DNA from: Pascua guehoae
Taxonomy: Eukaryota; Basidiomycota; Tremellomycetes; Trichosporonales; Trichosporonaceae
Direction of reading: 5' to 3'
Assembly: GCA_001600415.1 (NCBI GenBank)
Contig: BCJX01000019.1
Location: 121,888 to 185,887 of the forward strand
Length of the DNA: 64,000 nucleotides
The notes under the pieces were generated by a model that saw only the letters and a list, made by a program, of their open reading frames with translations, searched no databases and was not told the origin of the DNA. This document shows, in pieces, positions 6,015 through 55,002 of the stretch. The translations under genes and the position numbers were made by a program. The stretch's first letter is position 1, and every line of letters begins with the position of its first letter.

Positions 6015-6394
6015 ATGCTCGTCAAACCCCTGTTCGCTCTCTTCTTTGCCATCTCGGCCACCGTCGTCATCGCCGAGCCTGTCGAAGGCGAACACGAGGG
6101 GCGCGCACAGATGGGAGAGATTGTCGATCGCGCCGCCTGTGGGGGTAAGTACGCCACCATTGCAGGTTTATGTTCTTTCGTTGACATGAATATTAGTCCC
6201 CTGCCCGAAAGGGTAAGTGAACCGCCCGCCTGCACAGGTACTCGAGGCTTTCGTATCCCACTGACGACAAAAGCTACGATTGCTTCCGATGTCGGCCCAA
6301 GCTTTGGAGGTGTTGCCACCGCCTGGATCGCCGTTGCTACGGTGAGTACTGAGTACTTTCTGTCCTAACAAGAACAGATTGCTTCACGTGGTAG
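6015..6394 (+). CDS. small secreted 8-cysteine protein SCP1
   Basis: Four exons: 6015-6144, 6197-6212, 6274-6341 and 6378-6394, giving 76 aa. Phases are 1, 2, 1. Signal peptide MLVKPLFALFFAISATVVIA, probably cut before E-P. After a short charged pro-like stretch comes the cysteine core: CGGVPC, CPKGYDCFRC, then CCHRLDRRC and YDC, that is C-x4-C-x5-C-x2-C-x6-CC-x6-C-x2-C. Eight cysteines would allow four disulfides, so an extracellular role is inferred; activity is unknown. It is the first of three tandem paralogs on this strand (SCP2 at 7057, SCP3 at 8118), with two more at 53.5-55 kb. The exons are tiny (16, 68 and 17 nt) and are found only by matching the cysteine spacing among paralogs. 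I know of no named family with this pattern. Confidence 0.8.
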
Positions 6395-7056
6395 TTTTTG
6401 ATGCGCCGCCACAAATGACATTGTCTGTGATCTGTTCTCTATGGTAGCTACCCCCCAACAAAAACGAAACAATATGAAGTAGTCGTACGAGTCAAAATGA
6501 ATGTGCATATCGTCACGAGTAACGAACGAGCGAGTCATAATTGCTATGAGGCCACAACACCCAACGCGCGAGGCGAGACCACCGGCGCATCTCTCGGATG
6601 CTCTGGGCCCCGGAAGGTTGCTGTGAGCCCTTTGAACCTGTTGAGAGCTCCTGATTCTAGTCTGCTAGGTTGCAACAGGGCCATGCCGTTAACTCGATTC
6701 CGAAGCCTTGCACGTCTTGTAGCTATTGGACTCGGGATACGGTATTTCACGCTCGGTTGATTTTGGAGTGGATGCACGTGATGTGACAGTGACATCCTCT
6801 GTTGTGCTCTTGGCAGTCCAGATAAACTCCAAGGAACAAGTGTAACAAAGTTATAAACGTCATGTCAGAGGTCTTTCCTGCCCGTCGCGGTCTGTCTTGG
6901 CAGCCGTCCCGTGACCGTCTGTTCCCACCACAGCAAGGTGCACATTCTGGAAATACTACATATGAAGCAGAATCGCGTTGTCTAGATGAACAATCTTCCG
7001 CCCAACCCTCAGCCTACTCCTACCCAACGTACCTCCCGCGATCTTGACTTTGCATC
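6395..7056. other. intergenic within SCP cluster 1
   Basis: 662 bp between SCP1 and SCP2. It holds the inferred SCP2 promoter near its end and nothing else that I can support. Confidence 0.4.
6958..6966 (+). promoter_or_regulatory. TATA-like box of SCP2
   Basis: ACATATGAA lies about 91 bp before the SCP2 start codon, matching the position of the boxes of the paralogs. Confidence 0.35.
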
Positions 7057-7429
7057 ATGCACATCAAATCCATTCTTGCCATCTTCCTCGCCGTCTCGAC
7101 AACCTCTGCACTTGCGGCGCCCGCCGGCGGCGAAAAGGAAGCACGCTGGCCCCCTCCTGGCTGCACGAGTACGTATCATCCGTTCGTCTATGCCGGCTTT
7201 CAGTAGCTTGTTCGCTAACACAAAACTAGAAGATAGTTGCCCGCCGGGGTATGTGCAGGCCTTTCATTCTCACTGTCAGGTCGCTGACGGAACAGTTCTC
7301 GTTGCCTCTGGTGCCAGCAGGGCTTGCTTTTCTATCGGAGGTGCTGTGAACCACCCTTCGATAAGTGCCGTGAGCACTGCGTGCGTGTTGCTGTGGCTGA
7401 CTCTAGGGTGCACTCCATTGGGAATGTGA
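7057..7429 (+). CDS. small secreted 8-cysteine protein SCP2
   Basis: Exons 7057-7168, 7230-7248, 7296-7369 and 7407-7429 give 75 aa with phases 1, 2, 1. Signal peptide MHIKSILAIFLAVSTTSALA, cut before A-P. The core reads CTKDSC, CPPGSRCLWC, then nine residues, CCEPPFDKC and CRC: C-x4-C-x5-C-x2-C-x9-CC-x6-C-x1-C. The last intron is 37 nt (GTGAGC donor, GGCTGAC branch). If it were retained, the last pair would become C-x3-C with a longer tail, so two isoforms are conceivable. It is the middle gene of the tandem trio, 1042 bp start-to-start from SCP1 and 1061 bp from SCP3. Confidence 0.78.
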
Positions 7430-8117
7430 ATAACGACCGAGTCGGCTCAGAAGGACTTTGGAGTAGTTTTGCCATACTTGAGAGATGGATCTGATCTTGC
7501 AACTTGTTGCCTGTGGTGGTCTTTCAGGTTGACAGAAAGGCAGTATCGTATAGGACAGTGTTGGCAGTATTGCTAGACTCACTGTCTACCTATGCCCAAA
7601 CGTTTGTCCTACCATGAGGAGCAGACGGCTCACAGTCGCGCCCCGTAGCCCTGTCCGGGCAGGACGCGTGGACTGTATCCCACCCTCTAGTACGCTGCTT
7701 GGCAGCAGCCCCGAATACAAGCCTTCGGGACCAACTACGACTATAAAACACACGGGGAATCACCACTTGCCGTACACTCTGTAGACTCAGGCTGACTTGG
7801 GAGGAACCCATCCCTTGGTTGACGACTGTGGAGCTAGCCGGTGATATGGTTATGCCGTGCTGTCACCCGTGCCCAGATTGACTCCAACAAGGAACGCACA
7901 CAAGCAGCGTTTCAACGTCACCAGCGGTGTTGGATGCCCGTCAGACTCCCTTGGCACCCATCCTCGTGATCATCCGTGTCCACCAGGATGAGGCTCTCCT
8001 TCCTACTAGACTGACGCGAGGGCGTTTAAAACTCTCCACGGGTGCCGTTCTTCCTGTGGATTCTCACACTGCACTACAAGTACCCGCACCATTGAGGCCC
8101 AACCCAACCCAAACAAT
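7430..8117. other. intergenic within SCP cluster 1
   Basis: 688 bp between SCP2 and SCP3. No further gene or decayed copy could be found. The SCP3 promoter is presumably at the right end. Confidence 0.4.
8025..8030 (+). promoter_or_regulatory. TATA-like box of SCP3
   Basis: TTTAAA lies about 88 bp before the SCP3 ATG in an otherwise GC-rich stretch. Confidence 0.35.
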
Positions 8118-8532
8118 ATGTACCTCCAACCCGTGCTCGCGGCATTCCTCGCCATCTCCACCACTGTGCTTGCGGCGCCCATCGAAAAGGACAACAGGAT
8201 CGACCCACGCGCAGAGCCAGACGGCCGGATCCGCCCGACACCCGTTCTACCGTCCGTCAAGTGTGGCGGTACGTATTCCTCCCCGGTTGTTGTTTGGTCT
8301 CCTTTTCTAATGGGCAACAGACGAAACGTGTAACTGGCCGTTAGTGCCGACCTCCATTCAGACAAGAGATGAACGCTGACGCGACCAGGGGCTGGTGCAA
8401 TACCTGTGTACGCAACGGCGTGACGGTGTACGAATGCTGCTACCTGGACCAGGTTTGCCGTGAGTGCTGTGCGACACTGCGGTGTGCGACGCTGTGGCGC
8501 CTGACTCTACAGGACCATGCCGTTTCGTCTAG
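8118..8532 (+). CDS. small secreted 8-cysteine protein SCP3
   Basis: Exons 8118-8268, 8321-8339, 8389-8459 and 8513-8532 give 86 aa with phases 1, 2, 1. Signal peptide MYLQPVLAAFLAISTTVLA, cut before A-P. A longer charged propeptide-like segment (about residues 22-48, with a PRAEPDGR stretch) precedes the core: CGDETC, CNWPGWCNTC, nine residues, CCYLDQVC and RPC, that is C-x4-C-x5-C-x2-C-x9-CC-x5-C-x2-C. The acidic/basic segment between signal and core could be removed by a Kex2-like protease, but no classical KR site is visible. The tRNA-Leu(AAG) gene lies 400 bp downstream on the opposite strand. Confidence 0.8.
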
Positions 8533-8933
8533 GAGACAAGGCGGGTCAAGGCGGGGTCAAGGGGACGGCGCGGTTGTCATGTAACGTTTCGGCTAAACAT
8601 ATCAAGTACTCTATGTACGACATTGACAGTGAGAGTGGGATACGGCCACTGGTCGTCCTTTCAGCCCACACGCAAACCACGCACGCGTGAAGGCATCCAC
8701 GGTCCCCAAGTGTCGCAGGTGACAATGCCGCTCACTGCCAGATCTCCTTCATGTCCCATTATACCTCACGTGGCACTACGCAGTGTATCCACCCCCTGCT
8801 CAGGACCAACCTCGACCCTGACACCAACGAGGATGTCAGCAGATCCCAACAAACGCTGGCCCCCATCCCGTTATCCTTCAACGCCCGTACACACCCAAAA
8901 AGTTCGGTGTTGGGAGGAACTGAATCCTCTGTT
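8533..8933. other. intergenic between SCP3 and tRNA-Leu
   Basis: Contains the 3' flank of SCP3. The roughly 25 bp next to the tRNA match the flank of the second tRNA-Leu copy near 52.78 kb. Confidence 0.4.
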
Positions 8934-9021
8934 GACGAGAGTGGGATTCGAACCCACGTCCGAAGACTGCGGAGGTGACTAAACCTTAACACAGCGCCTT
9001 AGACCGCTCGGCCATCTCGCC
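8934..9021 (-). tRNA. tRNA-Leu(AAG), intron-containing, copy 1
   Basis: 88 nt on the minus strand, type II tRNA. The acceptor GGCGAGA pairs with TCTCGTC, the D stem is GCC/GGC, and the anticodon stem CTGTG/CGCAG encloses TTAAGG, giving anticodon AAG. An 11-nt intron (TTTAGTCACCT) follows position 37. The T arm is GTGGG-TTCGAAT-CCCAC. A second copy at 52674-52761 differs only in the intron, and the 3' flank is also shared. Confidence 0.9.
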
Positions 9022-9214
9022 GAACACGAATGCTCACTTCTAAGGAGGTCTATGTGGCGTCGTGACGACGACAACATGAATGTGGCACAAGACGCGAATG
9101 GATCAAGATAAAGACGTTGAACGATAGGTCAAGATGGATTAACGTACAAGTCCTCTCTTCCCTCCAACGTTGCGGGCCGCCGGCCCTACGGCGGCGGATA
9201 GAAACACTGTACAG

Positions 9215-9314
9215 GGGCGTGTAGCTCAGTTGGTAGAGCGCGACATTCGCACGATGTGGTTTACATCCTGCGCCTTACTTGTCGAGGTCTTTGGTTCGAT
9301 TCCTAACTCGTCCA
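9215..9314 (+). tRNA. tRNA-Ala(CGC), intron-containing, copy 1
   Basis: 100 nt including a 27-nt intron after position 37. The acceptor GGGCGTG/CTCGTCC carries the G3-T70 wobble pair that marks alanine tRNAs; its T6-T67 mismatch is, to my knowledge, also found in yeast tRNA-Ala. D arm GCTC/GAGC, anticodon stem CGACA/TGTCG with loop TTCGCA, anticodon CGC. The T arm TTTGG-TTCGATT-CCTAA has one mismatch. Confidence 0.88.
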
Positions 9315-9708
9315 TCTCTTTTGCCTTCTGGGGTTGCTCGCAGTCTCGGACATCGACGTATCCAGTCGTACAACAGAGGGGTGTATTGATAACGTGTTGT
9401 TGTTGGCGGGGAGTGGAGTTGACTCGGGTACCATGGACCAGCTCCGTGCCCGCCCCCAGAGCCCCCCCAGCCCAAGTGGCTGCCACTCCGACGACCGCAT
9501 CAGTGCTGGGGAACTTGGAGCCTCACCCCTCACACTGCGCGCTCCAGCAGCAACTCTCACGCTAGTTGCTCAGTCACGCTAGCCACTAGTAGTGACGCCA
9601 CCTGCGAGACCTAGTGTGCCACAACCACCAACGGCCGGCCGCACAGCTTCAGTAGCTAGCAGCCCTGAACGCCACCGGCCGGGGCACTGAATGATCACAC
9701 TCGAGGAC
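9315..9708. other. spacer between tandem tRNA-Ala genes
   Basis: 394 bp with no gene visible. The two tRNAs are dispersed rather than co-transcribed. Confidence 0.4.
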
Positions 9709-9807
9709 GGGCGTGTAGCTCAGTTGGTAGAGCGCGACATTCGCAAGATGTGGTCACATCCTGCGCACTACTTGTCGAGGTCTTTGGTTCGATTCCTAAC
9801 TCGTCCA
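9709..9807 (+). tRNA. tRNA-Ala(CGC), intron-containing, copy 2
   Basis: 99 nt with the same mature sequence as the copy at 9215 and a 26-nt intron that differs at several positions (one base shorter). Same G3-T70 pair, same anticodon CGC. The identical exons and drifting introns indicate a tandem duplication under selection for the mature tRNA only. Confidence 0.88.
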
Positions 9808-10605
9808 GCTCATTGTGCTTTTTGCGTCTGGTGGGTCACGACCCTTGGACGATGGCAGAGTGGGGGTGTTGTTGGGCGCTATCTCGAATGGGGACGGGTT
9901 GATATTGGTGGGCAGTGTTCAATGCCGTAGCTGGCCTATGTTTGTTGCAGGCGTTGACGGGTAGACGATGATGTACACGGTGAACCAGGTGTCTGGCATT
10001 GTCAGTGCCCCGGGGCGGCCAACGATTCTGAGGCGAGCCAGGCGTGCCATCGCTGGCCTGACGATGCCTCTTGGAATCTGGTTGGACACATGCCTGCCGC
10101 CTAACTGGCATCCCTTGTCGCCACCTTCTGGGAACTTTGGAACAGTTGCTACAACCCGCTTTCATCGGAAACAAGGGGTTGGAGGGGGTGGCTGGCGAGT
10201 GGCGACCGGCAATGTCTTGTTTCTAGTGAGAACGAGCGAAATCCCTATCGCTAGCTGTAAAGTGGACCTGGTGAAACCATAAAGCCGAGTCGGCCCGGTC
10301 GGTCTGGTGGCAGAAGGTTGCGTGCTGCAGGGAGCGGACCAAATGATACTCGTTCATGCTGCTCGGAAAAATCAATGCTCTAATCATCTCCTCATGCCGA
10401 CTACAAAATGCTGCTCATGCACATGACAGTGACTGATGGATTAACACTCCGTCCTCTTCTTCTCTGCGTGAATGCGGGGCAATGCGGAAGCGAGGCAAAG
10501 GTTCAGGAGAGTTGATACTCCGCCCTCGCTTTGAGGGTTCTCTCGCCAGAGCGGGCTCCTCAGTCGTGTTCCTTTGCCTCCGGGAAAACCGACGAGTTGC
10601 AGCGC
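9808..10605. other. intergenic
   Basis: About 0.8 kb between tRNA-Ala copy 2 and the 3' end of the striatin-like gene. No feature supported. Confidence 0.35.
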
Positions 10606-13480
10606 CTACCCTGAGCCCCAGAGACGGACGACGCCGTCGGCGCCGGCGCTCGCGATGATGGGTAGCTCGGGATGGCTCGCGACGTGCGTAACACCCTCGT
10701 CTGAGCGCTGTCTGTGGCCGGTGAGATCCTGGAGCGAAGTCTTGCGCTGCAAGTCCCAAAGGCGGACCGAGCAGTCGACGCTGGCGCTCAAAATGCACGT
10801 TGGCGATAGGGGCGATAGCGCGAGCGACGTGATGGGTGCGGGGTGCGCGAGAAGCGACGGCGACGACGCAGATCCTAAGGTGTTAGTGCTGATCAATGGG
10901 GCGGGCGGTGCAGAGGTACGCCCCCATGGCGAGTCTGTCAAGTTTGACAGGAGTTCCGCACAAGCGTGACCTCTAGGTGTACACGTACCCGTTTTAATGT
11001 CGTAGAACCGGAGGTGGCCATCCTCATGACCGGTAACGATGAGTGGAAGGGTTGGGTGGCTAAGCACAGCATTAACCTGCGAACCGATCTCGCCAAAGGG
11101 TTGAACCTCGCGGGCGTCTTCAATCGAGTAGAGCTTGACGAGGCCGTTGGAAAGACCAATGAGGACACGGCTAAAGTCGTGGTTGTCGATTGAGAGGCAG
11201 GTGGGGACTACGCCATTGCCAAAGTCGGAAAAGTTGGCCTGCAACGACCAGTGGCCATTGCGCTCGTCCCACAGCTTGGCCGTGCCGTCGGCCGAGACAG
11301 ACACGAGGCGTCCGTCGGACGGGCGCTTGGGGAAGCCGTTGGCGCCGCCGCCGGTATGGTTTCGGTCTGGCCGGGTAGGCAAGAGGCAAATGTCCCACAC
11401 GACATCCGAGTGACCCTCGAGGGTCTGGATCGCCGTCGAGGGGTCAAATGGCGCATACGGGTCGTGGTCACGCGGGGGCATTTGCCACAAACGGATGGTG
11501 GAATCCATCGAGGCCGAAAAGACAATGCCGAGCGTCGACGAGACGGCGACAGCGGTGACGGGCCCAGTGTGGCCGCGGAATGTGGCGACTGGCTCAAGCT
11601 CGGACGACGCATATGGGCGGTTGGTCGAGGGGATGACGCTGGTTGGGTCCAGGACCCATACCTTGACAGTCAGATCGTCGCCGCCAGTGGCAAGGACGAG
11701 GTCTGGGCCTTGGGCGACCGCCACGGCGCGGACAATGTCAAGATGACCCTTGAGCGCCCGGCGTGTCGACCATATACGGTCCGAAGAGCCTTCAGCTTCC
11801 TCGTTCTTTGTGTCCTCGTCCACCAGTGTCAATCCGGCGAGCTGCTCCTCGTCGCTAGTGCGACGCGGAGGCCAAGGTACAGCGCTCGCGGCCTCATTTG
11901 CCGCTCGCAGCTCCTCTCGCCATGCGGCCTTGCTCTCGGGGCGGTAGATTGCAGTCAAGGGTTGGCGGGGCGGGGACGTGCCGGCTCTAGGCGCCAGCTC
12001 GCCATCACCCTCGGGCAAGGAGGCGTGACGAGGGCCGGGAGACGAGGGGGGAGGGTCTGCAGGTGCCAAAGGGGCTGCAGACGGCGGAGCCGGAGCGGCC
12101 ACTGGTGCCGCAGCTGCCGGTTCCTGTGGAGCTGCCGACAAGGACGAGGAAGGATCATCAGATCCATTTGGGAGTGCAGCACTCCCTGTTGCAGCGGCGC
12201 CGGCGGCACCCACGGCGGTCGCGCCAGCAACACTCGCCGCACTTGAGCTAGCTCCCGAGCTAGTGCTCGAGCTAGCCGCCGCCGCGGGCTCCTCTTTTAC
12301 CTGGTCAGAAGCGAGGGTCGAAGGGAGCGGTTGTTCTGGAAGGGCCTTGCGTGGCCGATCAAGGGCAGTAGGTTCGCCGCTTTTAGGCGCCGCGCCTTCC
12401 TCGAGGGCGACGGGGGGCCGCGGCGGTAGGGGGTTGAGGGCGCCAGGCGAGGTCAGGTAGGTAATCTCTTGGAGACACTGCTTGAGGTACTCGCGGCTCC
12501 GCGCACGGGCCTTTGGGTCGCGCGGTGGGCCGCTGATATTCTTCCACGAGCTCGTGTCTGGGACTGGCCGGTGGGCAGTGTGTGCTGCCTTTGCCATGCC
12601 GGAATGCACGCCGTTGACCTTATGAGCTGGGCGGTCTGGTCGCGTCAGCGAGATGCAAGGAATAAGTTTGCAGTCGTGGGGCTACAATGCCCTCCCGACT
12701 TTGCTTCGCTGCTTCGTGACGAACCAATATCATCGCCACCTTCGCTGCTTCCGCTCCCCTCCTTGTCGTCACGGCTTGTCGTCCTGTCCTCATCCTGCAG
12801 CGCCGCAAGGCGCGCTGGAGGGACTGCAGCGGTTGTCGACGCTGGGCGTCCCGAGGCCGTCGCCTTTGTCCTGCACGCATTAGAACCTGAAACTGCCCTT
12901 CGGGTGTCGCACCTTTCCTGACGGAGAGCAAACTCGAGCATCTTGACGCGGCGCAAGAGGTCCACCTTGAGGTTTTCTGCCGAACGGCGTTGGCCTTCAA
13001 GGAGGGCGATGCGGGCCTGTAAAGCGATGGTCAGAACGTTCTCTGCCCTTTGGAGGCGGTCCTGCCCACACTCACTCGCATCTCTGCGCGCTCAATCTCC
13101 CACTCGTTGCGGTCCCGCTCCCAGCGGCGCCACTCGCTCTGGAGGTAGTGGAGCACGTTGGCGAGGTTCATCTCTGGCGGGGGCGCGACGTTGGACTGGC
13201 CGTCCTGCGTGCCCGGGCCCGACCCGCCACCCTGCTGCATTTGCTGCTGCATGCCTTGCTGCATGCCCTGTTGCATGCCCTGTTGTTGCATCTGCTGTTG
13301 CATTTGCTGCTGCATCTGCTGGGATGGGGGCTGGGGTCCACCACCGACGCCGACGCCGCCGTTTTGGAGCTGGTTTCCGCCGCCTACTGGTGACTGGTTG
13401 CCGCCGCCAGGATACAGTGGGGAAGGCGGGTATCCTGGTGTGTATTGGTCGCGCCGCTGGGAGCGCATCTTGACGCTCAC
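10606..13480 (-). CDS. striatin-family WD40 scaffold (STRIPAK subunit, PRO11/FAR8 type)
   Basis: Four exons on the minus strand: 13076-13480, 12725-13016, 10989-12635 and 10606-10874; the phases close to give 870 aa. Domain order is striatin-like. First comes an N-terminal Gly/Gln/Met-rich region with QQM and QGM repeats (about residues 45-80). Next is the caveolin-binding/coiled-coil segment LHYLQSEWRRWERDRNEW continuing to VKMLEFALRQER, the family's oligomerisation and phosphatase-binding part. A low-complexity Ala/Pro/Ser middle follows, then a C-terminal WD40 propeller beginning at RALKGHLDIVRAVAV and ending GVVRLWGSG. Family knowledge: a regulatory B-subunit scaffold of PP2A in the STRIPAK complex, governing cell fusion, fruiting and polarity. 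The exon 2 donor (GTTCGT) is the least certain boundary; the other junctions are canonical. Confidence 0.85.
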
Positions 13481-13840
13481 GCTAGCACGGAGCGGTGCAG
13501 AGCCGAGGCTGCTATCGCGGCAAGCTGCGAGGGAAGGGAAAGGTGGTTATGACAAGCACGAAGGCCAGCTGGACAGGGTGAGAGATTGACAAGTGTCCAA
13601 CTTTGGGTCCAGGATCACGCTCGAGGGGTAGTGTCGAGCGTTGTGGCCGGCGTTTCGTCGTGGCTCAAGGCTGCGCAACGGATGGGTCGGCGGGTGGTAA
13701 AGTGTGGCTGAGCAAAGTGGGTGGGGGTCCTCGAATTGCCGCGTGGCCGACGAGACGCGTTTGCAAGTGACAAGGTGGACTCTATTGCCCGGGTGACGCG
13801 CGGCAATGATCGTGTGGAGTGAAGTGGATGGTGTTGGTGT

Positions 13841-13860
13841 GGATGGATGGATGGATGGAT
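13841..13860. repeat. (GGAT)5 microsatellite
   Basis: Five perfect GGAT units, non-coding, in the region upstream of the striatin-like gene. Confidence 0.9.
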
Positions 13861-14290
13861 CAAGACGGGTCAATCGTAGCCGAGATGCAGAAGGAACGGT
13901 GTGTGTGTTGGTTGGTACAGGTCGGCAAACGCAACGAGCACCAGGTCACAGGTCGCGCGACCGTCTCCGAGTGTCGGGTCCGTGCGACAGCAGCGGGCGG
14001 GCGAGACGGGGAGGACGGGGGGGCGGGCGGGGTGGGGCGTGTCGCGAGGTCGTTACGAAATGCAATGCACGGAGGAAAGGGGATGTGCCCCCGGGGCGAT
14101 GGGGAGGAAGAGGGGGGAGGGAGGAGGGGATGAGATGGGGGGGAGAGGGTGAGGGGAGGTGACGTTGGGTATTGTTGGTGTAACCGACGACGAGGAAGAA
14201 AAGGAGGTAAGGTTGGAATGCAACTACAGTAATGTGCACCCGTCGACGAGTTGCGGCAACTGCAGCGGTACGGTAGAGGGTGCGCACAAA

Positions 14291-14333
14291 GCCATGCCAT
14301 GCCATGCCATGCCATGCCATGCCAGCTAGGCGT
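14291..14333. repeat. (GCCAT)8 microsatellite
   Basis: Eight perfect 5-bp units GCCAT followed by GCC; non-coding. Confidence 0.9.
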
Positions 14334-15006
14334 CATTCCACCCAGTGAGTCTCCCTCTGCCCTCTTTCGAGCAAACCAGCTGCCACCCAACCTGCCTCCT
14401 GCCTGTCTGCCATGCTTGGCCCTACCAGAGCTGCAGAGCTTGCAGAGGGCCCTAGGGTGCTGGTCTGCTATGACTGGTGTAACTGGGCGGCGGCGGCCCT
14501 TTCCCCTGTCCTTGTTGCATGCTGGCTGCTAGCCTGCTCCCTCCTTCCTCCCAGCATTGCCACGCTGTTACGACCTGGTGCCTTTGCGCCTGTGTGCCAT
14601 GCCACCCGTGCCACCCGTGCCAGCGGGGAGGGCGAGGGTTGAGGGCCAAGCGCGTCGTGGGCGGGGGGCGACACCTGACCTCCACCATGACGCTCACCGG
14701 CTGGCCACCGGCGTTACGGCGTTTTGCCTACAATGACACGGGTCAAACCTTATGTGGCGGGGCACCACACACCCACCCCTTCCACCACCCCACGTGTCAG
14801 CCAAAGCTGTAACAAACAAACGATAACGATGCGATGCCAGATAGCGATTCGGCCAACGCAGAGCACGACACTAATGCTTGAGGCCGTGATGCCCGCATGA
14901 GCCGACAGCTAGAGAGCCAGAGGTAGATACGATCCATCGCAAACCCGTAAAAGCTGCATTCCTTCTATATCAACTAATCCGCGAGTGTCATTGCCCCGAA
15001 CTAGAA

Positions 15007-42150: not shown

Positions 42151-42411
42151 AAGCAAGCGTAAGAGCGAGCGCAGCGAGCGATGGAGCGACGAGAGGGGTG
42201 AAGAGAGCGGAGAGGGGCGATTGCAGTTAGAGCGGAGACTAGCTCTAGAAGAAGATGCATGACCATGGGGCTCTAGACCATTCCGCCGTGTAGAGTCACA
42301 TGGCTCATGGTTCCATGGCTCATGACTCTCAGATGCGCGCAGCAAGAGCATATGTGCATGCCATGAATATACAAAAGTTTTCCAGACAAAGGAGGCCCAC
42401 GAGCGGCAACC

Positions 42412-44953: not shown

Positions 44954-47214
44954 ATGCGCAATCTACGTGCCCAGTTGTTGGCCGTTATCGTCGGCCTTGC
45001 GAGGGCGCCGCTCGTCAATGGCCAGGACTCTTCGAGCTCGCCTACGATGACGAGCGACGCGGCATCAAGTGACGCTGGGACAATGAGCGCGGCGGCTTCG
45101 AGCAATGCCGCTTCCGACGAGGCTGCGTCGGGTGCCTTTTATCTCGACAGCAGCAGCTTGCCGTCTTCCTCCACTATCACCGCCCCCGGTTGGAATCCCA
45201 CCCCACCCGTCTACAACTCGACAACCCCGTTCGTCCCCAGCCTGTTCTTCAACTGGACTTTCGACGCCAACGCTGCCTGGAACCTTTATAGCCCAGAGCA
45301 GATGCCTGCTTCTCACTATCCGGAAGGATATGGTGCCCCGGGCTGGATGACGAACTTTTCCCACGTCGATCAGGTCGGCTCGGCTGACGGCTCACACATA
45401 CGCTACGTACCGACCGCGAATGGCTGGGCAACCGCGACAGGGCAACCCGCTACAGGTCCGGATTACTACTTTAGCACAGACTTCCAGGGTAGAGCTGTGT
45501 ACATGACTGGAACGCACAATCTGAGCGCCAGATATCTTGAAGGGGTGGAGTTTATAACAACCGACATTGCGGTAGCCGTTTCCTACGAGAACCTGGGTCT
45601 CGTGGGACACGGGCGCATCTGGCAACCAGTGACCTACTCGAATACCACATGGGAGGCGAGTGCCGACATGGGGTTTGATATCAAGGCATTCAGCGCTAGA
45701 CTTCAATTTGCAAACGGATCCGAGCGTGGCCAATTCACTGTGGAGAGAATCACTTATACGATGGGCATTAAGAGCGATGCGTGGGTGCTTCATGCTCGGT
45801 GGCGTGGCTAGCTGACCTCTACCAGGTCTACCTTTGACGACGTACCCAGGGTTACCGAGTACGCCATCGACGGCAACAACTCGGCCAACCCCATCTTCTC
45901 TTTTCCTGGCACCACCAACTGGACAAGAGTGGATAATGGTGCGTATATGTCAAGAGTCTTGCTCAGTCCAATACTCATTCCAAAGTACCTCCATCGTACC
46001 CATACATTTTCTTCTCTGGCAACGCCACGATCGACGTGCCGCCAAACTCATCTCTTGTGCTGGTGAATGGTACGGCAGGACCGGGAATGGGCTATTTCAA
46101 TGTCTTCTTTGACCCAACGCCTCCAGCCCCCGACGTGTACGGTGGGTTTGCCCATCCAGCGTATCTCAACACCTACTACTACGCCCCGGCGCCCATGATA
46201 CTTCAGGTCCTCGATCCTACCGCCAAGTACACCGTCAGGGTGCAAACAGGATACAAACCAGGTGTGACCTACCCGTACAACGAAAATGGACTCAATCCTG
46301 ATTTCAACTATGTTGGTCTCCATAGCGCCACATTCTGGTACGTACATGTACGGCCCGTCCAGAAATGACCTGACCACCAGGGGCCCCAGCAACAGCGCAA
46401 GCGAGAGCGGAAGCGACACAGGAGAGAGCGGAAGCGGCACAGGCAAGAGTGGAGATGGCACAGACGAGGCACCTTTGAACGGCGACCGCTCGAAATCGCA
46501 CACACCTGTCGGTGGGATCGCAGGCGGAGTCGTGAGTTGTTGTTTATCGATTTTCCCGAGCTTACGGCCCAGGTTGGTGGAGTCGTCGGCGCCGCTCTCC
46601 TGGGCGGAGCAATATGGTTTTGCGCCCGGCGCAGATCCAAGCGCCGCGTCCGCCCCGTCAGAGTAGCAAACGAACCAAAGGGCTTTGCCATTGACGACGA
46701 CAGCCGCAATCGCGGACGAACAGATACCACGTATACCGGTAAGGACCAGGGCGAAGGGGGAAACGACACCAACACCATGACCGACTTGGATGGGGTCTTT
46801 GTCCCGCCGTGGGCGTTTACCGACAACGGCTCTTCCAGCGCCGACGGACCGACGGCCACAGGCACTTTTTCGACAACAGACATGTCCTCGACAGCGAGCG
46901 AGAGTACCGCCCCCGTCGCTACGATGAGTCGTGGGGAGAAGCGACGCTTCGGCCGACCAAACACAAGGCGCCCGGAGATGCTCCCCGTCCGCATGGGACC
47001 CAGGTTCCAGCAGGAAGAGGACGGCGGCGCCGTGGATACCAATGACGTGGTCGAGCTCATTCCTCCCACCTACAATCCCGCTTGGTATGCTGCCCGCCAA
47101 GCGACGCCTGAGGCCGAGGTGCCACTTTCGCCCCCCGGCCATCGTGACAACAGTGGTGGCGGCTTGGCAGTCGACCATCCGACGGACGTCGCGGGCGGCC
47201 ACAGGTCCAGCTGA
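44954..47214 (+). CDS. orphan type I membrane protein with large ectodomain
   Basis: Exons 44954-45780, 45826-45938, 45986-46337, 46381-46531 and 46573-47214 give 694 aa. Signal peptide at residues 1-23 (core LLAVIVGLARAPLVNG), then a Ser/Ala-rich mucin-like segment. An ectodomain of about 380 residues is rich in aromatic residues and N-glycosylation sequons (NST, NWT, NFS, NLS, NTT, NGS, NAT). A Gly/Ser stalk (SGSDTGESGSGTGKSGD) leads to one helix (GGVVGAALLGGAIWFC) followed by a stop-transfer ARRRSKRR and a 200-residue cytoplasmic tail with many Ser/Thr. The design is that of a wall or surface sensor/adhesin. The ectodomain shows repeated blocks such as YFSTDFQGRAVYMTGTHNLS and YIFFSGNATIDVPPNSSL, suggesting two beta-sandwich modules. 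I cannot name a characterised family. Confidence 0.7.
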
Positions 47215-47391
47215 TAGCGCGAGCATTTGCCGTTTAGCCCTGCGGGCGGGGTTAACGGACGTGAGAGTCGTAAGCCTATCATTTATTATGGAGTGGAGGT
47301 GACCGTGCTGGCATACGTATGTACACCACCATTTACTACGTGTCCGTCTGGCCGTCTAGGCCTACCATGTATGCAATGCATGTCAGTCTAT

Positions 47392-48491
47392 CTATTCCCA
47401 CTCGTCATCAGAGCCCCTGGCCTTCTTCCCCCTCCCATTCTGGCGTGGCGACTTGCGTCCATTCGCATTGGCCGCATTGAGCGCGGCCTCTTCGGCCTCG
47501 AAGCGCGCCACCTCGGCCTCGGCGGCGGCAAGCTCTCCACGGTCAAAGTCGAGCGAGGCGCGGTCCAGGTCCATGGACGCACGGACAACGGCCTCGCGTG
47601 TGGCCGCCGCCGACGAGACGGGGTTGACGTCGCGCGTGAGTGGCAGCATGTGGTATGTCGCGCTCCGGAGGTGGGCTGCGTACGAGTAGAGCACGAGGAT
47701 GAAGTAGATCTGCGCGTGTTAGTAGGAAGGTAGGGAGTGGACTGTACACACCTTTAACAGGAAGCCAAAGAAGACGACACCGAGGGCAAAGTTCTTCTCG
47801 TTGTTCCAGATCTGCGTGGCCAGCACCTCGCGGTTCTCGGCCTCTGTGCGCCCCTCGCCACCCGAGAGGTCTGCAATCTCGCCCCGGGATTTGGCCAGGT
47901 CGTAGATATCCTGCTGTGCGGGCGAGTTGAGAATGGGCCGGCCGTCGTGGTGCTTGTGCCAGTAGTTGTACATGAAGATGTAGTGGAAGATCCACACGAG
48001 GGCATGGTCGAGCACATACAAGTGCGCGACGAGGAGTGTCCTCTGTGCCGTTTCCTGTATGTAAGCGGGTGCGGCCGTCAGAGGAGACGTGGAAGTAGAA
48101 GCACAGCCTACTCACAGACTTGATAACATTCAGTGCCCAGAGGAACGCAAACAAGGTCGCAAACGAGTATGCGTAGAACAGAAACTGGGCAAATGTGCCG
48201 CCGACAAACACGGTAATGAGGCCGTACACACCCGCGACCTTGTTGATGAGCTGCAGTGTGAGCGGGGGTTAGTCTTCGTCGCTGCGCCTCACGCCAAAGA
48301 GGAGGATCAGTTCACATCCTGTGGAAGGTGGTTAGCGATGCCACGGGACAGACACGGGACACGAAACACGTGTGGCACGGGGCGGGTCCTTTCCACGGTG
48401 CCACAACACACGCACCGAGTTTGATGTCGAGGATGCCAAGAAACGAGGCAAACACGGCACCGGGCTGGAACCGGCGCACGCTGATCCTCAT
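47392..48491 (-). CDS. KEI1: Kei1-like subunit of inositol phosphorylceramide synthase
   Basis: Five exons: 48416-48491, 48293-48318, 48116-48250, 47752-48054 and 47392-47709, giving 285 aa. Four membrane segments are visible. The opening FASFLGILDIKLGCELILLF is followed by NKVAGVYGLITVFVGGTFAQ, as in the Kei1/DUF1753 family. Next come the conserved HALVWIFHYIFMYNYWH region and the fourth helix LGVVFFGFLLKIYFILVLYS. The C-terminus is a long cytoplasmic acidic/alanine-rich helix ending DDEWE, longer than in yeast. Family role: Golgi regulatory partner of the IPC synthase catalytic subunit, needed for sphingolipid synthesis. The second exon is only 26 nt. Confidence 0.82.
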
Positions 48492-48961
48492 GGCTAGTGG
48501 TGGTGAGGGAGGGGGGTGAAGGTGGAGAGTTGTGAGCTGCCAACGATGGAGATGTGGGAGACAACGCGTCCGTGGAAGTGGATGGCCTGCATGGTCTCGT
48601 CGGTCGCATCGGCGGCCGACGCGGTCAGTGACGCCATATGCGCCTATTAGAGGACGGGTTTAGGCACGCACTGCTACCTTATTGGCTAGTGGGTGAAAAG
48701 AAACGCTAAATGGGGTACGAGGACGTAAAAGTGCCACATAATTTGGTGAATTTTTCGCGCCAAAATGCCGATTCATCGAAACTGTACGGTGCCGACAACG
48801 TGTGGCTGAGTCGCTCGAGCTCCTGGCTGGGGGGGGGCGGCAGCGAGGGCCAGTCCTGGTGGGAGGAGGTTTGGGACTGGCAACCTGGCACTGGGTGCGT
48901 TGGCTGGCGTTGAAACTCATATTCGTCCCTTCGTCGTCTTTCTTCTCACCCAGCAACAAAA
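48492..48961. other. divergent promoter KEI1 / RPS3
   Basis: 470 bp between start codons; AT-rich around 48700-48780, a G-run near 48829. No other gene. Confidence 0.45.
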
Positions 48962-50342
48962 ATGGCCTCGACCACGCAGATCTCCAAGAAGAGGAAGTTT
49001 GTCGCCGACGGTGTCTTCCAGGCCGAGCTCGGCGAGTTCTTGTGCGTGCTACCGCCCGGCGTCGGCGTCGACAAGCCCCGTGTGGACCGCGAGTTGGAGC
49101 GCAAAGGCGAAACTTGTGGCTCGCGAAACACACTACGCGGGGGTTGTCGAACCGATGGGCTAGGGAGGACGATGACGAGGAGAGACCAGACGCTGACGAC
49201 CGCAGCACTCGTGAGCTCGCCGAGGAGGGCTACTCTGGCTGCGAGGTCCGCGTCACCCACGCGCGCACCGAGATCATCATCCGCGCCACCCACACCCAGG
49301 AGGTCCTCGGCCACCAGGGCCGCCGCATCCGCGAGCTCAAGGCCCTCGTCGAGAAGCGCTTCAAGTTCCCGGCCGGCTCGCTCGAGCTCTACGCCGAGAA
49401 GGTCCAGTACCGCGGTCTCTCGGCCGTCGCCCAGGCCGAGTCGCTCCGTTACAAGCTCCTCGGTGGTCTTGCCATGCGCCGGTGAGTCTCGGATCCGAGG
49501 GGTTCTGAGGGGGGGAGAGGGCAACAGAGGGGCTATGAGAGGTCTGGTGAAGGGTCGTCTGTGATGGGAGAGGTGCTTTGGGCATCCCAACACTCCCGTG
49601 GCACCCATGGTGGCAGCCCACCGTAGCACCAATGTGGCGCCACAAAGGGATCGGCACCGAACCACCTCGAGTCACTTTGACTTTGAGCACTCGTCCCACC
49701 AACCCTCCCTCGTCCTCTTGCATCCCAAACCGGTCCCGAATCGAGTCTGGAATCCCTACAGAGTACATTGCTAACCCACAGTGCTTGCTACGGTGTCCTC
49801 CGCTACGTCATGGAGTCTGGCGCCAAGGGTTGCGAGGTTGTCGTCTCCGGCAAGCTCCGCGCTGCTCGTGCCAAGTCGATGAAGTTCACCGACGGTGTGA
49901 TGCTGCATTCAGGTGACCATCGGCCTTGTTTTTGTCTAGAACGCTCTTCTAACCCGCGCAGGTCAGCCCAAGAACGACTTCGTTGACTACGCCGTTCGCC
50001 ACGTCCTCCTCCGCCAGGGTGTCCTCGGCATCAAGGTCAAGGTAGGTTCAAACACCTTCTACTGCTCTAGAACGTCGCTAACGCTCTCTTAGATTCTCAA
50101 ACCCACCGACGCAAGTCTCCTTTTTTTTTATTGTTTGAGAGCTCCAGAGTGCTTTACTAACCCCCCCACAGCCCCAGGGTCTCCAGGGCCCCTCGAAGCC
50201 ACTCCCCGACCACGTCACCCTCGTCGAGCCCAAGCCCGAGGCCGAGATCGAGATCCGCAGCGAGCACAAGGACCTCCCCCCTGCTGCCGTTGCCCCTGCC
50301 GCTGCCCCCGAGGCCCCGGCGGCCGAGCCGGTCGCTGCTTAG
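48962..50342 (+). CDS. RPS3: 40S ribosomal protein S3 (uS3)
   Basis: Six exons: 48962-49041, 49206-49481, 49782-49912, 49962-50041, 50093-50110 and 50172-50342, giving 251 aa. It starts [20 protein letters not shown] and continues through [20 protein letters not shown] to the KH domain ([20 protein letters not shown]). The conserved [20 protein letters not shown] and [20 protein letters not shown] follow, then the C-terminal [12 protein letters not shown]. It sits at the mRNA entry channel. The fifth intron starts with GCAAGT instead of GT: only this GC-AG intron joins KPTD to PQGLQGP in frame. Introns 1-2 are longer (164 and 300 nt), as often in ribosomal protein genes. Confidence 0.95.
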
Positions 50343-51793
50343 TCCGCCCAACTTGTATGATAGGGGGATGGATTGCTGCACTTCACCAGAATGGAGGAGG
50401 GTGAGCGGAGGGCGAGCGGTGACTGGATAAGGCGTGTGAGGACTGAATGGAGGTATGGGACGTGCTGGAGACGTGCGCGTGTGTGTCTTCTGCGCGTTTG
50501 ATGGGTTGGAAAGCGTCTCGAGCTCGAGAGTGGAAGAGGGGATGATGTGGGATGATGTCGAGGTGGGATGCCACACTCGGCTGGGTGAGAGGAGAGGACA
50601 GTGCCACACAGACTTGGCACTCTGGTGCGTCATCTTCTGGAGATGCTCAGGTTCTGCAGAGCGCATGGCCAATGTCTGTCGTTACGGGTACGAGGTGTGA
50701 TTGCGACTCATCTTGGGAAGACGGCATCGTCAGTGCCACCAAGATCTCCGTACTCTGCTCGCTCTTGTATTTCTGTTCCCTTTGGTTTATTTTGCTGCTT
50801 CCCCATGCCGATGTCTCCAGGAGCTGCACATGGTTCCACAGATCAGATGTCCAGCACGGTGGTGAGCGCTGGATGGTCTTGCGAGCAAAATGTGGCAGTC
50901 GGATTGTCACGTGACTTCGGCCACATGTGCCACAATAGGTGCTGCCACGCAACATGTCAACCATCTACGCAGCAGTCCTCTGTTGTGGTCGGTGTGCCTG
51001 TTCTGGATAACCATGGCTGCAGTATGACAATGTGCTCCGGTTCTACACAAATGCCAAGTTCCATCAACGAGTATAAATGGCACAAGACGGAAATGGCGAT
51101 AAAGGTAAATAAATGGCTGACACCAAGTGGTGCCCGTCTCGGGCATGGTAAACCGTCCACAGAGGTACAGTGCATAGCGAATCTGCACAGCAACGTCTGC
51201 ATAGGATGACTGTCTTTGCTGGAGGTACGGTCCCCCAGCATGGCCCTCACCACTGAGACAGAATAATTCGGGGCAGTCGACATTCCCGAGCACTGCCCAG
51301 TCAAGAATACTATTCTCCCCTAAAACACACTGGGATAATTCGGCCTCTCTCAAGCTTGGGATGAAGTTACAGTATGCGATCGCGGCGAGCCTCTCCCAGC
51401 TGGTCCAGCTGGCCAGCTGTGTAGATTGCGGTCATCGCTGAGATTCTACAGTACTAGGCACAATGTAGGTGATTGACGAGGGGAGCGTGGGGCGCAACAA
51501 CAATACTTGGTTCCGCCTCCGACGATCATGGGAGACCACCTCGTGCGCATGAAAATTCACGCCCGATGCATCTTCCCTCCACTTCCTTCCTTTCCTTTCC
51601 TTCCTTTCATTTCTCTTTCGTCTTCTCTTTCGTCTTCTTTTTCGTCTTCTCTTTCGTCTTCTCTTTCGTCTTCTCTTTCGTCTTCTCTTTCACCCACTAC
51701 CTCTTTGGTACTTCACATTCCATTCACATTCCACCTTGACCCAACCTCCTACTTCGAAACATTGTTCTCGCCCAAGCAATCGTAACCGCAACC
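50343..51793. other. intergenic with pyrimidine-rich promoter
   Basis: 1.45 kb downstream of RPS3. No gene seen. The last 200 bp are a CT-rich tract with 12-bp repeats directly upstream of the next start codon. Confidence 0.5.
51586..51692 (+). promoter_or_regulatory. CT-rich tract with 12-bp tandem repeats
   Basis: CCTTCCTTTCC-type runs pass into about seven copies of a 12-mer TCTCTTTCGTCT on the coding strand. The tract ends about 100 bp before the ATG at 51794. Such pyrimidine tracts precede transcription starts of highly expressed fungal genes; a promoter role is inferred. Confidence 0.55.
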
Positions 51794-52361
51794 ATGCCCG
51801 AGGGGCCGACAAAGGTTTGTTGCCACTATGAGTCTCTGTTTCTTCAGAGGGATTTGATTGACAGCAGGCCGGCAAGACCACCCAGGACGTACGTTTCTGA
51901 AGCCAGGTCGTAGAGGTCGATGCTCTCTCTCTTACAAGCCAGCAGCCCAGCATGGGTCCCTCGGCAGTCTCGGCTACTCTGAAGGAGCGCGTTATGATCG
52001 CTCTGTGCGTGACAGACAACGCCTCTGCCCAGGACCTGACACCCTTCTCCAGGTACCTCACCCTGTATGGTTATCGCCACGTCCGCGAGATTCCCGTTCC
52101 CTTTCCGCTCGACCACTGCGCTGCGATAGGTGACCAGCTTGGTCGTAGCGCCAAAGACATCCAGGCGATCCTCATCTGGCACCACGGCGCCATCCAGGAC
52201 GAGATGGCCCCCGTCGCTCTCACCCTCAGGATCGGGGGTCCCGCCTGCCTGGGTCCGGGTGAGTATCCGTCGCCTTTTTAGACGTCAATCATTGTCTAAT
52301 CCTCTCAGACCTCTCCAAAGAGGCCATCGCGTACCTTCGCAACCTCGGCCTCTTCGGGTAA
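51794..52361 (+). CDS. small protein of unknown function
   Basis: Exons 51794-51814, 51867-51890, 51943-52258 and 52309-52361 give about 137 aa (the second acceptor could shift by one codon). No signal peptide or membrane helix. The core reads LKERVMIALCVTDNASAQDL, then YRHVREIPVPFPLDHC, LGRSAKDIQAILIWHHGAIQ, ending AIAYLRNLGLFG. The LGRSAKDIQ helix slightly resembles the recognition helix of SANT/Myb-like domains, but the tryptophan pattern is absent. I do not recognise the family. Two tiny 5' exons and a strong CT-rich promoter suggest a real, expressed gene. Confidence 0.6.
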
Positions 52362-52673
52362 CGGACGAGTAGGCGGTCACGATACGTCGAGACAAGATGG
52401 GCTGGAATGGACGACGACAAGGACAACGTCGCCGATGGATAATACGGCAATGAAGCATGACGGGACCGGGTATGACACAAGTCAAGACGGAGAAGCATAG
52501 GCTGGGACACAATTGAACATGCGTTGAGGCGAGAAGAGTGTGAACCACAAGGAAGGTCCCGATGATGCTCACAACTCAAGACTGCAGACACAGGAGGGGA
52601 AGAGGAGAAGGGAGGTATCTCAGTGAAACTCCTCGCACTGATTTAAAACACCTGGATTTCTTGTTCCTGTATC
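52362..52673. other. intergenic
   Basis: 312 bp between the small protein and tRNA-Leu copy 2. No feature recognised. Confidence 0.4.
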
Positions 52674-52761
52674 GGCGAGATGGCCGAGCGGTCTAAGGCG
52701 CTGTGTTAAGGTTTATCTACCTCCGCAGTCTTCGGACGTGGGTTCGAATCCCACTCTCGTC
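52674..52761 (+). tRNA. tRNA-Leu(AAG), intron-containing, copy 2
   Basis: 88 nt; anticodon AAG at 52708-52710, 11-nt intron TTTATCTACCT at 52712-52722. Arms are identical to the copy at 8934-9021. The following AACAGAGGATT and CAGTTCCTCCCA-like flank is also nearly the same as in copy 1, so the duplicated unit exceeded the tRNA itself. Confidence 0.9.
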
Positions 52762-53505
52762 AACAGAGGATTTAGTTCCTCCCAAGCCAATATTTTTGAC
52801 CTCTTTGGAATATTGGCGCTTCATGGGGCCACTATGCGGACGACACGGTGAGGAAGAGGCGAGCGCCGCACCCTGTGAGAACAGAGCCTTTGTAGCAGGC
52901 CATATAAGGCCTTACGAGAGTGACAAGCCGCAGGCATGAGAATCGCAGAGGTACGTGCACGAGCTACACGAAGGTCACATGGACGGGATGGTTGCCGCCA
53001 AGGACATACAGAACAATTACTTGGAGACAAGATAGTTATCTTCTGTCTGTCCCCTGGAGTTTCCTCTGTCTCTTCTGTCGCTCATTTTCACATATATTAA
53101 TAGACTTCCATCCAAGGCCTGTCTGGACCAGGGGAGAAGCCAGACCGGGGCCGATAAATGGGTGATGGTGCTGGCTGCTATGACCAAGGCCCAGAGCACA
53201 ACGATAGTATCCACAACTCTAATTGCAATCGCGCTCCCAACTATCATAATGAGCAGAGCTTGCAACGTCCACCTGACACGAACAAGGTCTTCATGTACCT
53301 TGGATCGCGCTTATCGGGGCGGCCAGCGGTTCTGCATGCCCGTCGCATTTGCTTGGCATCGCTCGTGCTGATCATGGCCTGGTCTGACAGCAGGCTACAT
53401 AAAGGCAAGCTGAATGCCATTAATTCAGTCGCATCCCGCTCTGGATTAACCACCGCACCCACTACCCACAGTTCCCAGTACAGTACCACCAAACCAGCCG
53501 CTATC
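52762..53505. other. intergenic between tRNA-Leu and SCP4
   Basis: 744 bp. Holds the tRNA flank and, at its end, the inferred SCP4 promoter. No further gene seen. Confidence 0.4.
53396..53403 (+). promoter_or_regulatory. TATA-like box of SCP4
   Basis: TACATAAA lies about 103 bp before the SCP4 ATG, in register with the boxes of its paralogs. Confidence 0.4.
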
Positions 53506-53856
53506 ATGCTCGTCAAGCCCCTCCTCACCCTCTGCTTCGCCATTTCGACCACGTGTGTGCTCGCCGCCCCCGACGCCCAGAATCCTGGTGGTGGATATAT
53601 CCACCCGTCCGCATTCCATTGCAGAGGTACGTAAACTCTCGGGGCTGGGTATGATGTTCCACACTGACACCGGCAGGCTTCAAGTGCGCTGCCGGTAAAC
53701 AATGCTACCGCTGCCCCAACCCGAGAGGTGGTGGATCAGAGGAAAAGTGCTGCTCCATCATCCAGGGTAGAGACTGCGGTAGGTGCTTCGGTACGTGCCG
53801 CACCTGACTTTACAGAACCGGGATGCCGCCCCAAGATCCGGCTCCCCAGTTTTTAA
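53506..53856 (+). CDS. small secreted 8-cysteine protein SCP4
   Basis: Exons 53506-53626, 53677-53778 and 53816-53856 give 87 aa. Signal peptide MLVKPLLTLCFAISTTCVLA, cut before A-P; its first nine residues differ from SCP1 by only two. Core: CRGFKC, CAAGKQCYRC, eleven residues, CCSIIQGRDC and EPGC, that is C-x4-C-x5-C-x2-C-x11-CC-x7-C-x3-C. The position of intron 2 of the other paralogs (after TGC-NNN-NNN-GG) is here uninterrupted coding sequence, so that intron was lost exactly. The last intron is 37 nt; a nearer GTACGT donor would insert a few residues and one more cysteine. The tail after the last cysteine is basic and longer than in SCP1-3. Confidence 0.78.
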
Positions 53857-54599
53857 TGATGTTGTAGTGGAGAATTCTGTCCGTAGTCGTCAAAAGCAAC
53901 ACATCGTTGTGGTTCAGTTTAGGAATGGCTATGCAGGCGTGGTATACGGTAGCGAGTAGCGTTGACTTGGGGTCAGACAAAACCACATTCGTGGTGATAG
54001 CTGCCTGCCACGATTAACTCACGACAGCCACTAGGCCACCGCACATCACCGGTACGGGTTGCGAGGGGCTAGGCCCGCCGTTTGCGAGACTCTTGGGTGC
54101 CAGGGGTCACGCGAGTCGAACACTTGCTTGGGTAACATGCATAGTTCCACTCTACGTCGCTCTGCGACCAAGAATCGAGGCTCTCTGTGGAATGTCGATC
54201 ACGCGGCCGGTGTGGGGGGAGTGAGGCACATTGAGGGTCGGTGTGTGGGGAGTGAGGTACATTGACGACTAAACACCATGAGGTAATTGGAGCGTGGCCC
54301 ATATGAGACTGCACGGCACGATGACGATGGCTACAGAGGACCTCCCACGGACCCAACTCCAACCCCATGGCACACCCCCGTCCACCTGACATTGCGACGC
54401 GTCCTGAAACAAGCGTATCGAGGAACCAGCGGTGTCAAGTGCCCGCCACTTTGCTTGGCATTCTCTACCCGGTGACCATGGGCCGTCTACCAGAAACGTA
54501 TATGATGCCGTTGCAAGTGGCCCGAGTTGGGCCTCTCAAGAACACACTCTTCAACTCATCCACACCTATCGGAACAGTCCAACACTCTCTCCACCCGTC
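53857..54599. other. intergenic within SCP cluster 2
   Basis: 743 bp between SCP4 and SCP5; no additional copy found. The SCP5 promoter is at the right end. Confidence 0.4.
54499..54503 (+). promoter_or_regulatory. TATA-like box of SCP5
   Basis: TATAT (in CGTATATGA) lies about 97 bp before the SCP5 ATG. Confidence 0.4.
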
Positions 54600-55002
54600 A
54601 TGCTCTTCAAGCCCCTCATCGCCCTCCTCGCCATCTCGGCCACGTCCGTGCTCGCCGTCCCCGCCCCAGCGGCCGAAGCTGCCGCTACAGGAGGCGACAT
54701 CGTGGCCCCCCCACCATGCGGTGGTTCGTACACTTACCGAGCTGGGTTGGTTTTCCTCGCTGACTCAACAGACAAGAGGTGCAAACCGTTTGTGTGAGTG
54801 GCGAGATTTTTCACCTCGCCAGCGGAAGTGTGGCTGTCCCTAACCCACAGCCATCGTTGCGTCTACTGCCCCGGGGAACGAGCTGCATCTCAATACAAGT
54901 GCTGCCGGTTTTCGGACAGGAGCTGCTGTGAGTGCTGCGGCTGTGTCGCGGCTGACTTTAGCACATGGATGCGTACCCAATCAAGGGCCCGTTTCGGAGT
55001 GA
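54600..55002 (+). CDS. small secreted 8-cysteine protein SCP5
   Basis: Exons 54600-54723, 54772-54793, 54851-54927 and 54962-55002 give 87 aa with phases 1, 2, 1. Signal peptide MLFKPLIALLAISATSVLA, cut before V-P, then an Ala-rich segment. Core: CGDKRC, CKPFVHRCVYC, ten residues, CCRFSDRSC and SHGC: C-x4-C-x6-C-x2-C-x10-CC-x6-C-x3-C. The final intron is only 34 nt. If it is retained, a cysteine-rich CCECCGC extension appears, so alternative splicing could change the cysteine count. It starts 1094 bp after SCP4, the same spacing as in cluster 1. Confidence 0.78.

What the first reader, a model, noticed from the sequence alone, without database searches (positions are those of the whole stretch)
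6015..55002. An apparently undescribed family of five small secreted 8-cysteine proteins
SCP1 (6015-6394), SCP2 (7057-7429), SCP3 (8118-8532), SCP4 (53506-53856) and SCP5 (54600-55002) become visible only after splicing exons as short as 16-23 nt. Each gives a 75-87 aa protein with a hydrophobic signal peptide and the same cysteine frame: C-x4-C-x5/6-C-x2-C-x6-11-CC-x5-7-C-x1-3-C. The residues between cysteines are almost unconserved while spacing, signal peptide and splice phases are, the usual mark of fast-evolving secreted effectors, antimicrobial peptides or wall proteins. I know of no named family with this pattern.
Basis: partly seen in the sequence, partly recalled or inferred. Interest (0 to 1): 0.92.

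Follow-up and report, generated by a model that had tools for sequence, protein, structure and literature searches.

The report
Fast-changing secreted mini-proteins of a yeast
A basidiomycete yeast carries five neighbouring genes for tiny secreted proteins that share a cysteine skeleton but differ in almost everything else, as might be expected of molecules aimed at changing outside targets; what they do is not known.

Summary
Core + phase-1 donor + upstream signal peptide occurs only at these five places in 350 kb, and in none of 30 resamples. New here: four of the five share a promoter block with only seven matches in the 33.6-Mb genome. Apart from the cysteine codons, the core exon shows no residual DNA similarity, while the last intron does. 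No Pfam, PDB or protein relative was found, in a protein database that does hold other Trichosporonales. Best reading: a lineage-restricted family of secreted disulfide mini-proteins with fast-changing loops, most likely antimicrobial, in the style of the mushroom protein cylindracin. Function, secretion and disulfides are inferred. Positive selection is not shown (p = 0.076 in the closest pair; pN exceeds pS in only 3 of 10 pairs). Orphan small secreted cysteine-rich families are a known kind in fungi; this is a new member.

The parts
6015..6394 (+). SCP1 gene; exons 6015-6144, 6197-6212, 6274-6341, 6378-6394; 76 aa
7057..7429 (+). SCP2 gene; exons 7057-7168, 7230-7248, 7296-7369, 7407-7429; 75 aa
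8118..8532 (+). SCP3 gene; exons 8118-8268, 8321-8339, 8389-8459, 8513-8532; 86 aa
53506..53856 (+). SCP4 gene; exons 53506-53626, 53677-53778, 53816-53856 (no second intron); 87 aa
54600..55002 (+). SCP5 gene; exons 54600-54723, 54772-54793, 54851-54927, 54962-55002; 87 aa
6879..6902 (+). upstream block TGCCCGNC..CTTGGCA of SCP2, 178 bp before ATG (AGCGGT part degenerate)
7923..7956 (+). upstream block AGCGGT-N6-TGCCCGNC..CTTGGCA of SCP3
53325..53358 (+). upstream block of SCP4
54428..54460 (+). upstream block of SCP5
6342..6377 (+). last intron of SCP1 (phase 1, between C7 and C8)
7370..7406 (+). last intron of SCP2
8460..8512 (+). last intron of SCP3
53779..53815 (+). last intron of SCP4
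54928..54961 (+). last intron of SCP5

Best explanation
SCP1-5 are a tandemly duplicated, apparently lineage-restricted family of secreted disulfide mini-proteins. Each precursor has a conserved ~20-residue signal peptide, a short unconserved spacer (15-29 residues), and a 35-49-residue core whose eight cysteines probably form four disulfides that hold exchangeable loops. Four of the five genes share a promoter block and are probably switched on together. The core changes so fast that only its cysteines are kept, as when a protein must track a changing outside partner. The most likely role is antimicrobial: four of five cores are basic, so they may act on the membrane or wall of competing microbes, as the mushroom protein cylindracin does. 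Shown: the gene models by sequence, the shared frame, the shared promoter block, the conservation pattern, the charges. Inferred: use of the predicted splices, secretion, disulfide bonding, co-regulation, selection for change, antimicrobial action.
Against: SCP3 core is slightly acidic. In the SCP4-SCP5 core pN 0.64 against pS 0.45 is not significant (p = 0.076), for the whole mature part p = 0.28, and silent change is also higher in the core than in the signal peptide (p = 0.013), so gene conversion of the 5' exon or misalignment may contribute. Over all 10 pairs pN exceeds pS in the core in 3 only, with silent sites near saturation (mean pS 0.77, pN 0.68). Introns 1 and 2 do not exceed exon 3 once splice ends are trimmed (p = 0.43 and 0.72). 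SCP1 lacks the promoter block. No expression data, no structure of a whole core, no relative.
Confidence: 0.4

Rival explanations
1. Host- or partner-directed effectors: secreted to manipulate an animal, plant or fungal partner, with variation tracking the partner's receptors.
For: Same style of conservation as candidate effectors of barley powdery mildew, with signal peptides under purifying selection and diversifying selection a general trend in 18 families (PMC3582587, passages). Tandem duplication.
Against: The organism looks like Trichosporonales, an order of saprotrophs and opportunists (PMC12820176, start of abstract). Only five copies were found. No partner is known.
Confidence: 0.18
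2. Cell-surface or matrix proteins: small cysteine-rich proteins that coat the wall, with loops drifting under weak constraint rather than selected for change.
For: Small cysteine-rich fungal proteins include surface-active hydrophobins (PMC3922079, start of abstract). Silent sites in the core are diverged too, and excess amino-acid change is not significant.
Against: Hydrophobin order (two CC pairs, from recall) is not met. Cores are polar (GRAVY -0.13 to -0.72). Neutral drift alone does not predict a core less similar than the last intron.
Confidence: 0.17
3. Protease inhibitors or other binders built like WAP or conotoxin framework XII domains, with a variable reactive loop.
For: The order C-C-C-C-CC-C-C is that of conotoxin framework XII (PMC4278219, passage) and of WAP domains (recalled).
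Against: Spacings differ from recalled WAP spacing. No WAP match in Pfam at E up to 10. No PDB match by sequence (best E 0.45, unrelated) or by fold of a 33-residue piece (best E 5.4).
Confidence: 0.1
4. The last intron is sometimes retained, and the retained reading supplies the eighth cysteine: the conserved last intron would then be partly coding.
For: Reading through it supplies a cysteine with at most three residues after C7 in SCP2-5; it is the best conserved intron.
Against: SCP1 ends before any such cysteine. The spliced form gives C8 with 1-3 residues between in 5 of 5.
Confidence: 0.1
5. The cysteine frame is an artefact of choosing splice sites freely in non-coding DNA.
For: No transcripts; very short exons; one weak donor.
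Against: 0 of 30 resamples against 5 real hits; shared signal peptide, promoter block and last intron.
Confidence: 0.03

Closest known systems
Cylindracin / PRI3 proteins of Cyclocybe mushrooms (Basidiomycota)
   Same: 95-aa precursor with 20-aa signal peptide, acidic spacer (pI 4.01) and basic domain with eight conserved Cys (pI 8.07), whose recombinant form is antifungal (PMC11532979, passages).
   Different: The cysteine spacing is not in the text read. From recall of the agrocybin N-terminus, the second cysteine lies further off than C-x3/4-C. Sequence kinship was not tested.
Conotoxin framework XII (I4 / E superfamily)
   Same: Cysteine order C-C-C-C-CC-C-C (PMC4278219, passage). Constant signal part with hypervariable mature part is a general conotoxin trait (recalled; a cited title says so).
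   Different: Animal venom peptides; only the order is shared, and kinship was not tested beyond the searches.
WAP / four-disulfide-core domain
   Same: Eight Cys with one CC pair at positions 5-6 (recalled).
   Different: Spacings differ from those recalled; no Pfam match.
Candidate effector families of Blumeria (CSEPs)
   Same: Signal peptide under purifying selection, diversifying mature part in many families, conserved cysteines (PMC3582587, passages).
   Different: YxC motif in 63% of 491 members; a plant pathogen with hundreds of members.

Membership tests
Fungal small secreted cysteine-rich proteins (descriptive class) | short precursor with N-terminal signal peptide | tested here: met
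   75-87 aa; hydrophobic start ending in A before xP in 5 of 5; hydropathy only, no SignalP
Fungal small secreted cysteine-rich proteins (descriptive class) | high cysteine content at conserved positions | tested here: met
   8 invariant Cys columns in 5 of 5
Fungal small secreted cysteine-rich proteins (descriptive class) | actual secretion | not testable with these tools
   needs secretome data
WAP four-disulfide core | profile match in Pfam | tested here: not met
   no match at E up to 10 for any of 5
WAP four-disulfide core | C4-x5-C5C6-x3-C7-x3-C8 spacing (recalled) | tested here: not met
   here x6..11, x5..7, x1..3
Hydrophobins | eight Cys with two CC pairs (recalled) | tested here: not met
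   one CC pair, at positions 5-6; no Pfam match
Cylindracin / PRI3 | signal peptide, acidic spacer, basic 8-Cys domain | tested here: inconclusive
   core basic in 4 of 5; spacer net negative in 3 of 5, 0 in SCP2, +1 in SCP3
Cylindracin / PRI3 | sequence homology / cysteine spacing | not tested
   sequence not printed in the passages read; no protein search left
Conotoxin framework XII | order C-C-C-C-CC-C-C | tested here: met
   against passage; order only, no claim of kinship
Granulin-like beta-hairpin stack | fold match | tested here: inconclusive
   33-residue SCP4 piece: hairpin in the best of five models (pLDDT 75.6; others 53-67; pTM 0.33); best match 1fwo, E 5.4, prob 0.10

The most novel reading that the evidence does not exclude
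A yeast has evolved a small, lineage-specific set of venom-like secreted peptides: the gene cassette (promoter block, signal peptide, last intron) is held constant while the cysteine-framed mature part is driven to diversify until only the cysteines remain, and each paralogue carries its own set of loops for its own target.
Probability: 0.26. Interest if true: 0.7.

Novelty: new member of a known kind. Interest (0 to 1): 0.44.

Why it matters
Genes with 16-23-nt exons and no relatives are easily missed by automatic annotation (inference), so such families may be under-counted in basidiomycete yeasts. If the loops are selected to change, this is a compact natural set of disulfide mini-proteins in a yeast. 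Killer-type mycocins have been reported from a yeast named Trichosporon pullulans (only a title in a reference list seen), but I met no described protein family like this one in the searches made (listings). The promoter block and the cysteine frame together give a concrete way to look for the family in sister species.

Tried and rejected
Further copies in the genome. A composite signal-peptide query found SCP1, 2, 4, 5 but not SCP3, so sensitivity is limited. Full-length SCP1, 2, 3, 5 and the SCP4 core found themselves plus four weak hits: C17:10292 (E 0.24, one stop), C1:2651595 (E 0.09), C6:636020 (E 0.06), C17:276596 (E 0.22). Three of the four were fetched. Against those 2.2 kb alone, SCP1 scores E 2.6e-6 (37% over 43 aa) at C17:276596 and SCP5 E 0.004 at C6; I rejected both because neither shows a signal peptide or the cysteine frame, and such E-values are for a tiny database. 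C17:10292 was not fetched. 31 of the 31 last-intron-motif sites outside the window (34) and 10 of the 27 first-intron-motif sites outside it (29) were scanned without a further member; 17 were not seen. A 33-bp blastn hit of SCP2 at L032 (E 0.002) is at a site chosen for that very motif and has no frame. Only 352 kb of 33.6 Mb were read.

A tblastn hit at L001 with a suggestive C-x2-C..CC..C-x2-C pattern and one stop lies in a stretch without a signal peptide whose other strand reads to me like the start of a glycerol kinase (own reading, no family search): taken as chance.

The three other genome matches to the promoter block (C7, C15, C16) show no SCP-like gene in the 900 bp read downstream (also scanned). 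The shorter block AGCGGT-N6-TGCCCG is not specific by itself: 10 matches, 3 of them SCP3-5, and 10 in the reversed-pattern control.

'Introns more conserved than exons' as a general claim: whole introns do exceed the exons, but after trimming splice signals only the last intron does. Exons 2 and 4 are too short (16-41 nt) for their low Z to mean much.

First chance control: matched the cysteines greedily and counted 3 of the 5 genes (real 14 cores, 3 with donor, 3 with signal peptide; 15 resamples together 19, 2, 2). Replaced (real 22, 5, 5; 30 resamples mean 1.2, 0, 0).

A DUF2650 match to SCP5 (E 1.8, 8.8 bits against a cut-off of 22.9) is taken as noise.
Full report
What was checked. I rebuilt each from the sequence. 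Phases are 1, 2, 1 in four genes; SCP4 lacks the second intron, so its second exon holds C2 to C7 in one piece. The one correction to the stated frame is C-x3-C at the start of SCP1.

Is it more than chance? The five precursors align with 14 invariant columns, eight of them the cysteines. I scanned the 350,043 bp then held, in 64 pieces: the window, 200 kb of its flanks on the same contig (C19:2000-121999 and 185800-265799), and 43 selected 2-kb sites elsewhere. The scan asks for C-x2-C-x5..13-CC-x4..8-C, a phase-1 donor within one further codon, and an ATG with a hydrophobic stretch 60-450 bp upstream. It gave five hits, SCP1-5; thirty first-order Markov resamples of the same length gave none. 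The core alone occurs 22 times (resample mean 1.2), so it is the combination that is specific. A first version of the control with looser donor placement gave 2 hits in 15 resamples. The scan was designed after seeing the five, which favours them.

A shared promoter block. The upstream regions of SCP2-5 share AGCGGT-N6-TGCCCGNC-N6..9-CTTGGCA (AGCGGT degenerate in SCP2; absent in SCP1), with TGCCCG 160-183 bp before the ATG. TGCCCGNC-N4..10-CTTGGCA occurs seven times in the 33.6-Mb genome; four of the seven are these promoters (reversed-pattern control 1), and the other three have no SCP-like gene in 900 bp downstream. The pattern was written from the four. CTTGGC is the complement of GCCAAG, a PacC/Rim101-type site; that is recalled (a listing for PacC and GCCARG was seen, no paper opened), and a pH link is only a lead.

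Selection is not shown. In the closest pair, SCP4 and SCP5, non-synonymous change rises from 0.15 in the signal peptide to 0.64 in the core (p = 6e-8), but synonymous change rises as well (0.11 to 0.45, p = 0.013), and pN over pS in the core is not significant (p = 0.076; whole mature part 0.28). Over ten pairs pN exceeds pS in the core in three, with silent sites near saturation. Conversion of the 5' exon between copies, or misalignment, could explain part of it.

Relatives. Pfam: none; at E up to 10 one noise match to SCP5. Solved structures by sequence: best E 0.45, unrelated. Protein database of 5.8 billion: 950 candidates shared words, none at E up to 1. As a control for coverage, a striatin-like protein of the window finds Vanrija (60-63% identity), Cutaneotrichosporon (61-62%), Apiotrichum (60%) and, further off, Kwoniella and Cryptococcus (42-48%); an arylsulfatase finds a Cryptococcus at 68%. 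From these two proteins the host looks like a Trichosporonales yeast without a close relative there. Because the genes depend on 16-23-nt exons, annotated proteomes of sister species may miss them; absence there is weak evidence.

More copies. Queries with all five proteins (for SCP4 the core only), two intron motifs and BLAST against held DNA found no sixth member that I accept (doubtful hits are told under tried and rejected). 352 kb of 33.6 Mb were read; 17 of 27 first-intron-motif sites outside the window were not seen. Within what was read the family forms two tandem groups, 45 kb apart, both on the + strand.

What it may do. After a ~20-residue signal peptide come a spacer of 15-29 residues and a core of 35-49 residues. 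Core net charges are +5, +3, -1, +6, +4; spacer net charges -4, 0, +1, -1, -2. This resembles cylindracin of Cyclocybe, with its acidic spacer and basic eight-cysteine antifungal domain (PMC11532979, passages). I take antimicrobial antagonism as the most likely role, at 0.40; effector-like, surface and inhibitor roles are rivals. The order C-C-C-C-CC-C-C also belongs to conotoxin framework XII (PMC4278219, passage) and, from recall, to WAP domains; neither is claimed as kin. A 33-residue piece of SCP4 folds, in the best of five models, as a beta-hairpin with C3 and C4 on one strand and C5 and C6 on the other (pLDDT 75.6, pTM 0.33), with no significant fold match; this cannot settle the fold.

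Novelty. Orphan families of small secreted cysteine-rich proteins are common in fungi (established knowledge); this is a new one as far as searched. I saw no description of it in the listings, most of whose papers I did not open, nor in passages of a Trichosporonales genome paper (PMC12820176), whose main text has no occurrence of 'cysteine', 'effector' or 'small secreted'.

Noticed in passing
4909-4979 (-) and 8933-9021 (-): Two tRNA genes lie on either side of the SCP1-3 group: tRNA-Gly (GCC) and one that ARAGORN could not type.
   Followed up: partly
2542-3837 (-): Carboxylesterase-family gene (PF00135, E 1.1e-56) near the SCP1-3 group.
   Followed up: no
53677-53815: SCP4 lacks the second intron that its four paralogues have, perhaps a precise intron loss, as its nearest paralogue SCP5 keeps it.
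   Followed up: partly
7370-7406, 8460-8512, 53779-53815, 54928-54961: Reading through the last intron of SCP2-5 supplies a cysteine at most three residues after C7, so intron retention would make alternative 8-Cys tails.
   Followed up: partly
54207-54266: Two near-copies of a ~30-bp stretch upstream of SCP5, seen by eye.
   Followed up: no
10609-12681 (-): Striatin-like WD40 protein, useful as a taxonomic marker: closest to Vanrija and other Trichosporonales at 60-63%.
   Followed up: yes
L066 (C17:276400-277100): A stretch that resembles SCP1 residues 6-48 at 37% (E 2.6e-6 against 2.2 kb; genome-wide E 0.22) but without signal peptide or cysteine frame.
   Followed up: partly
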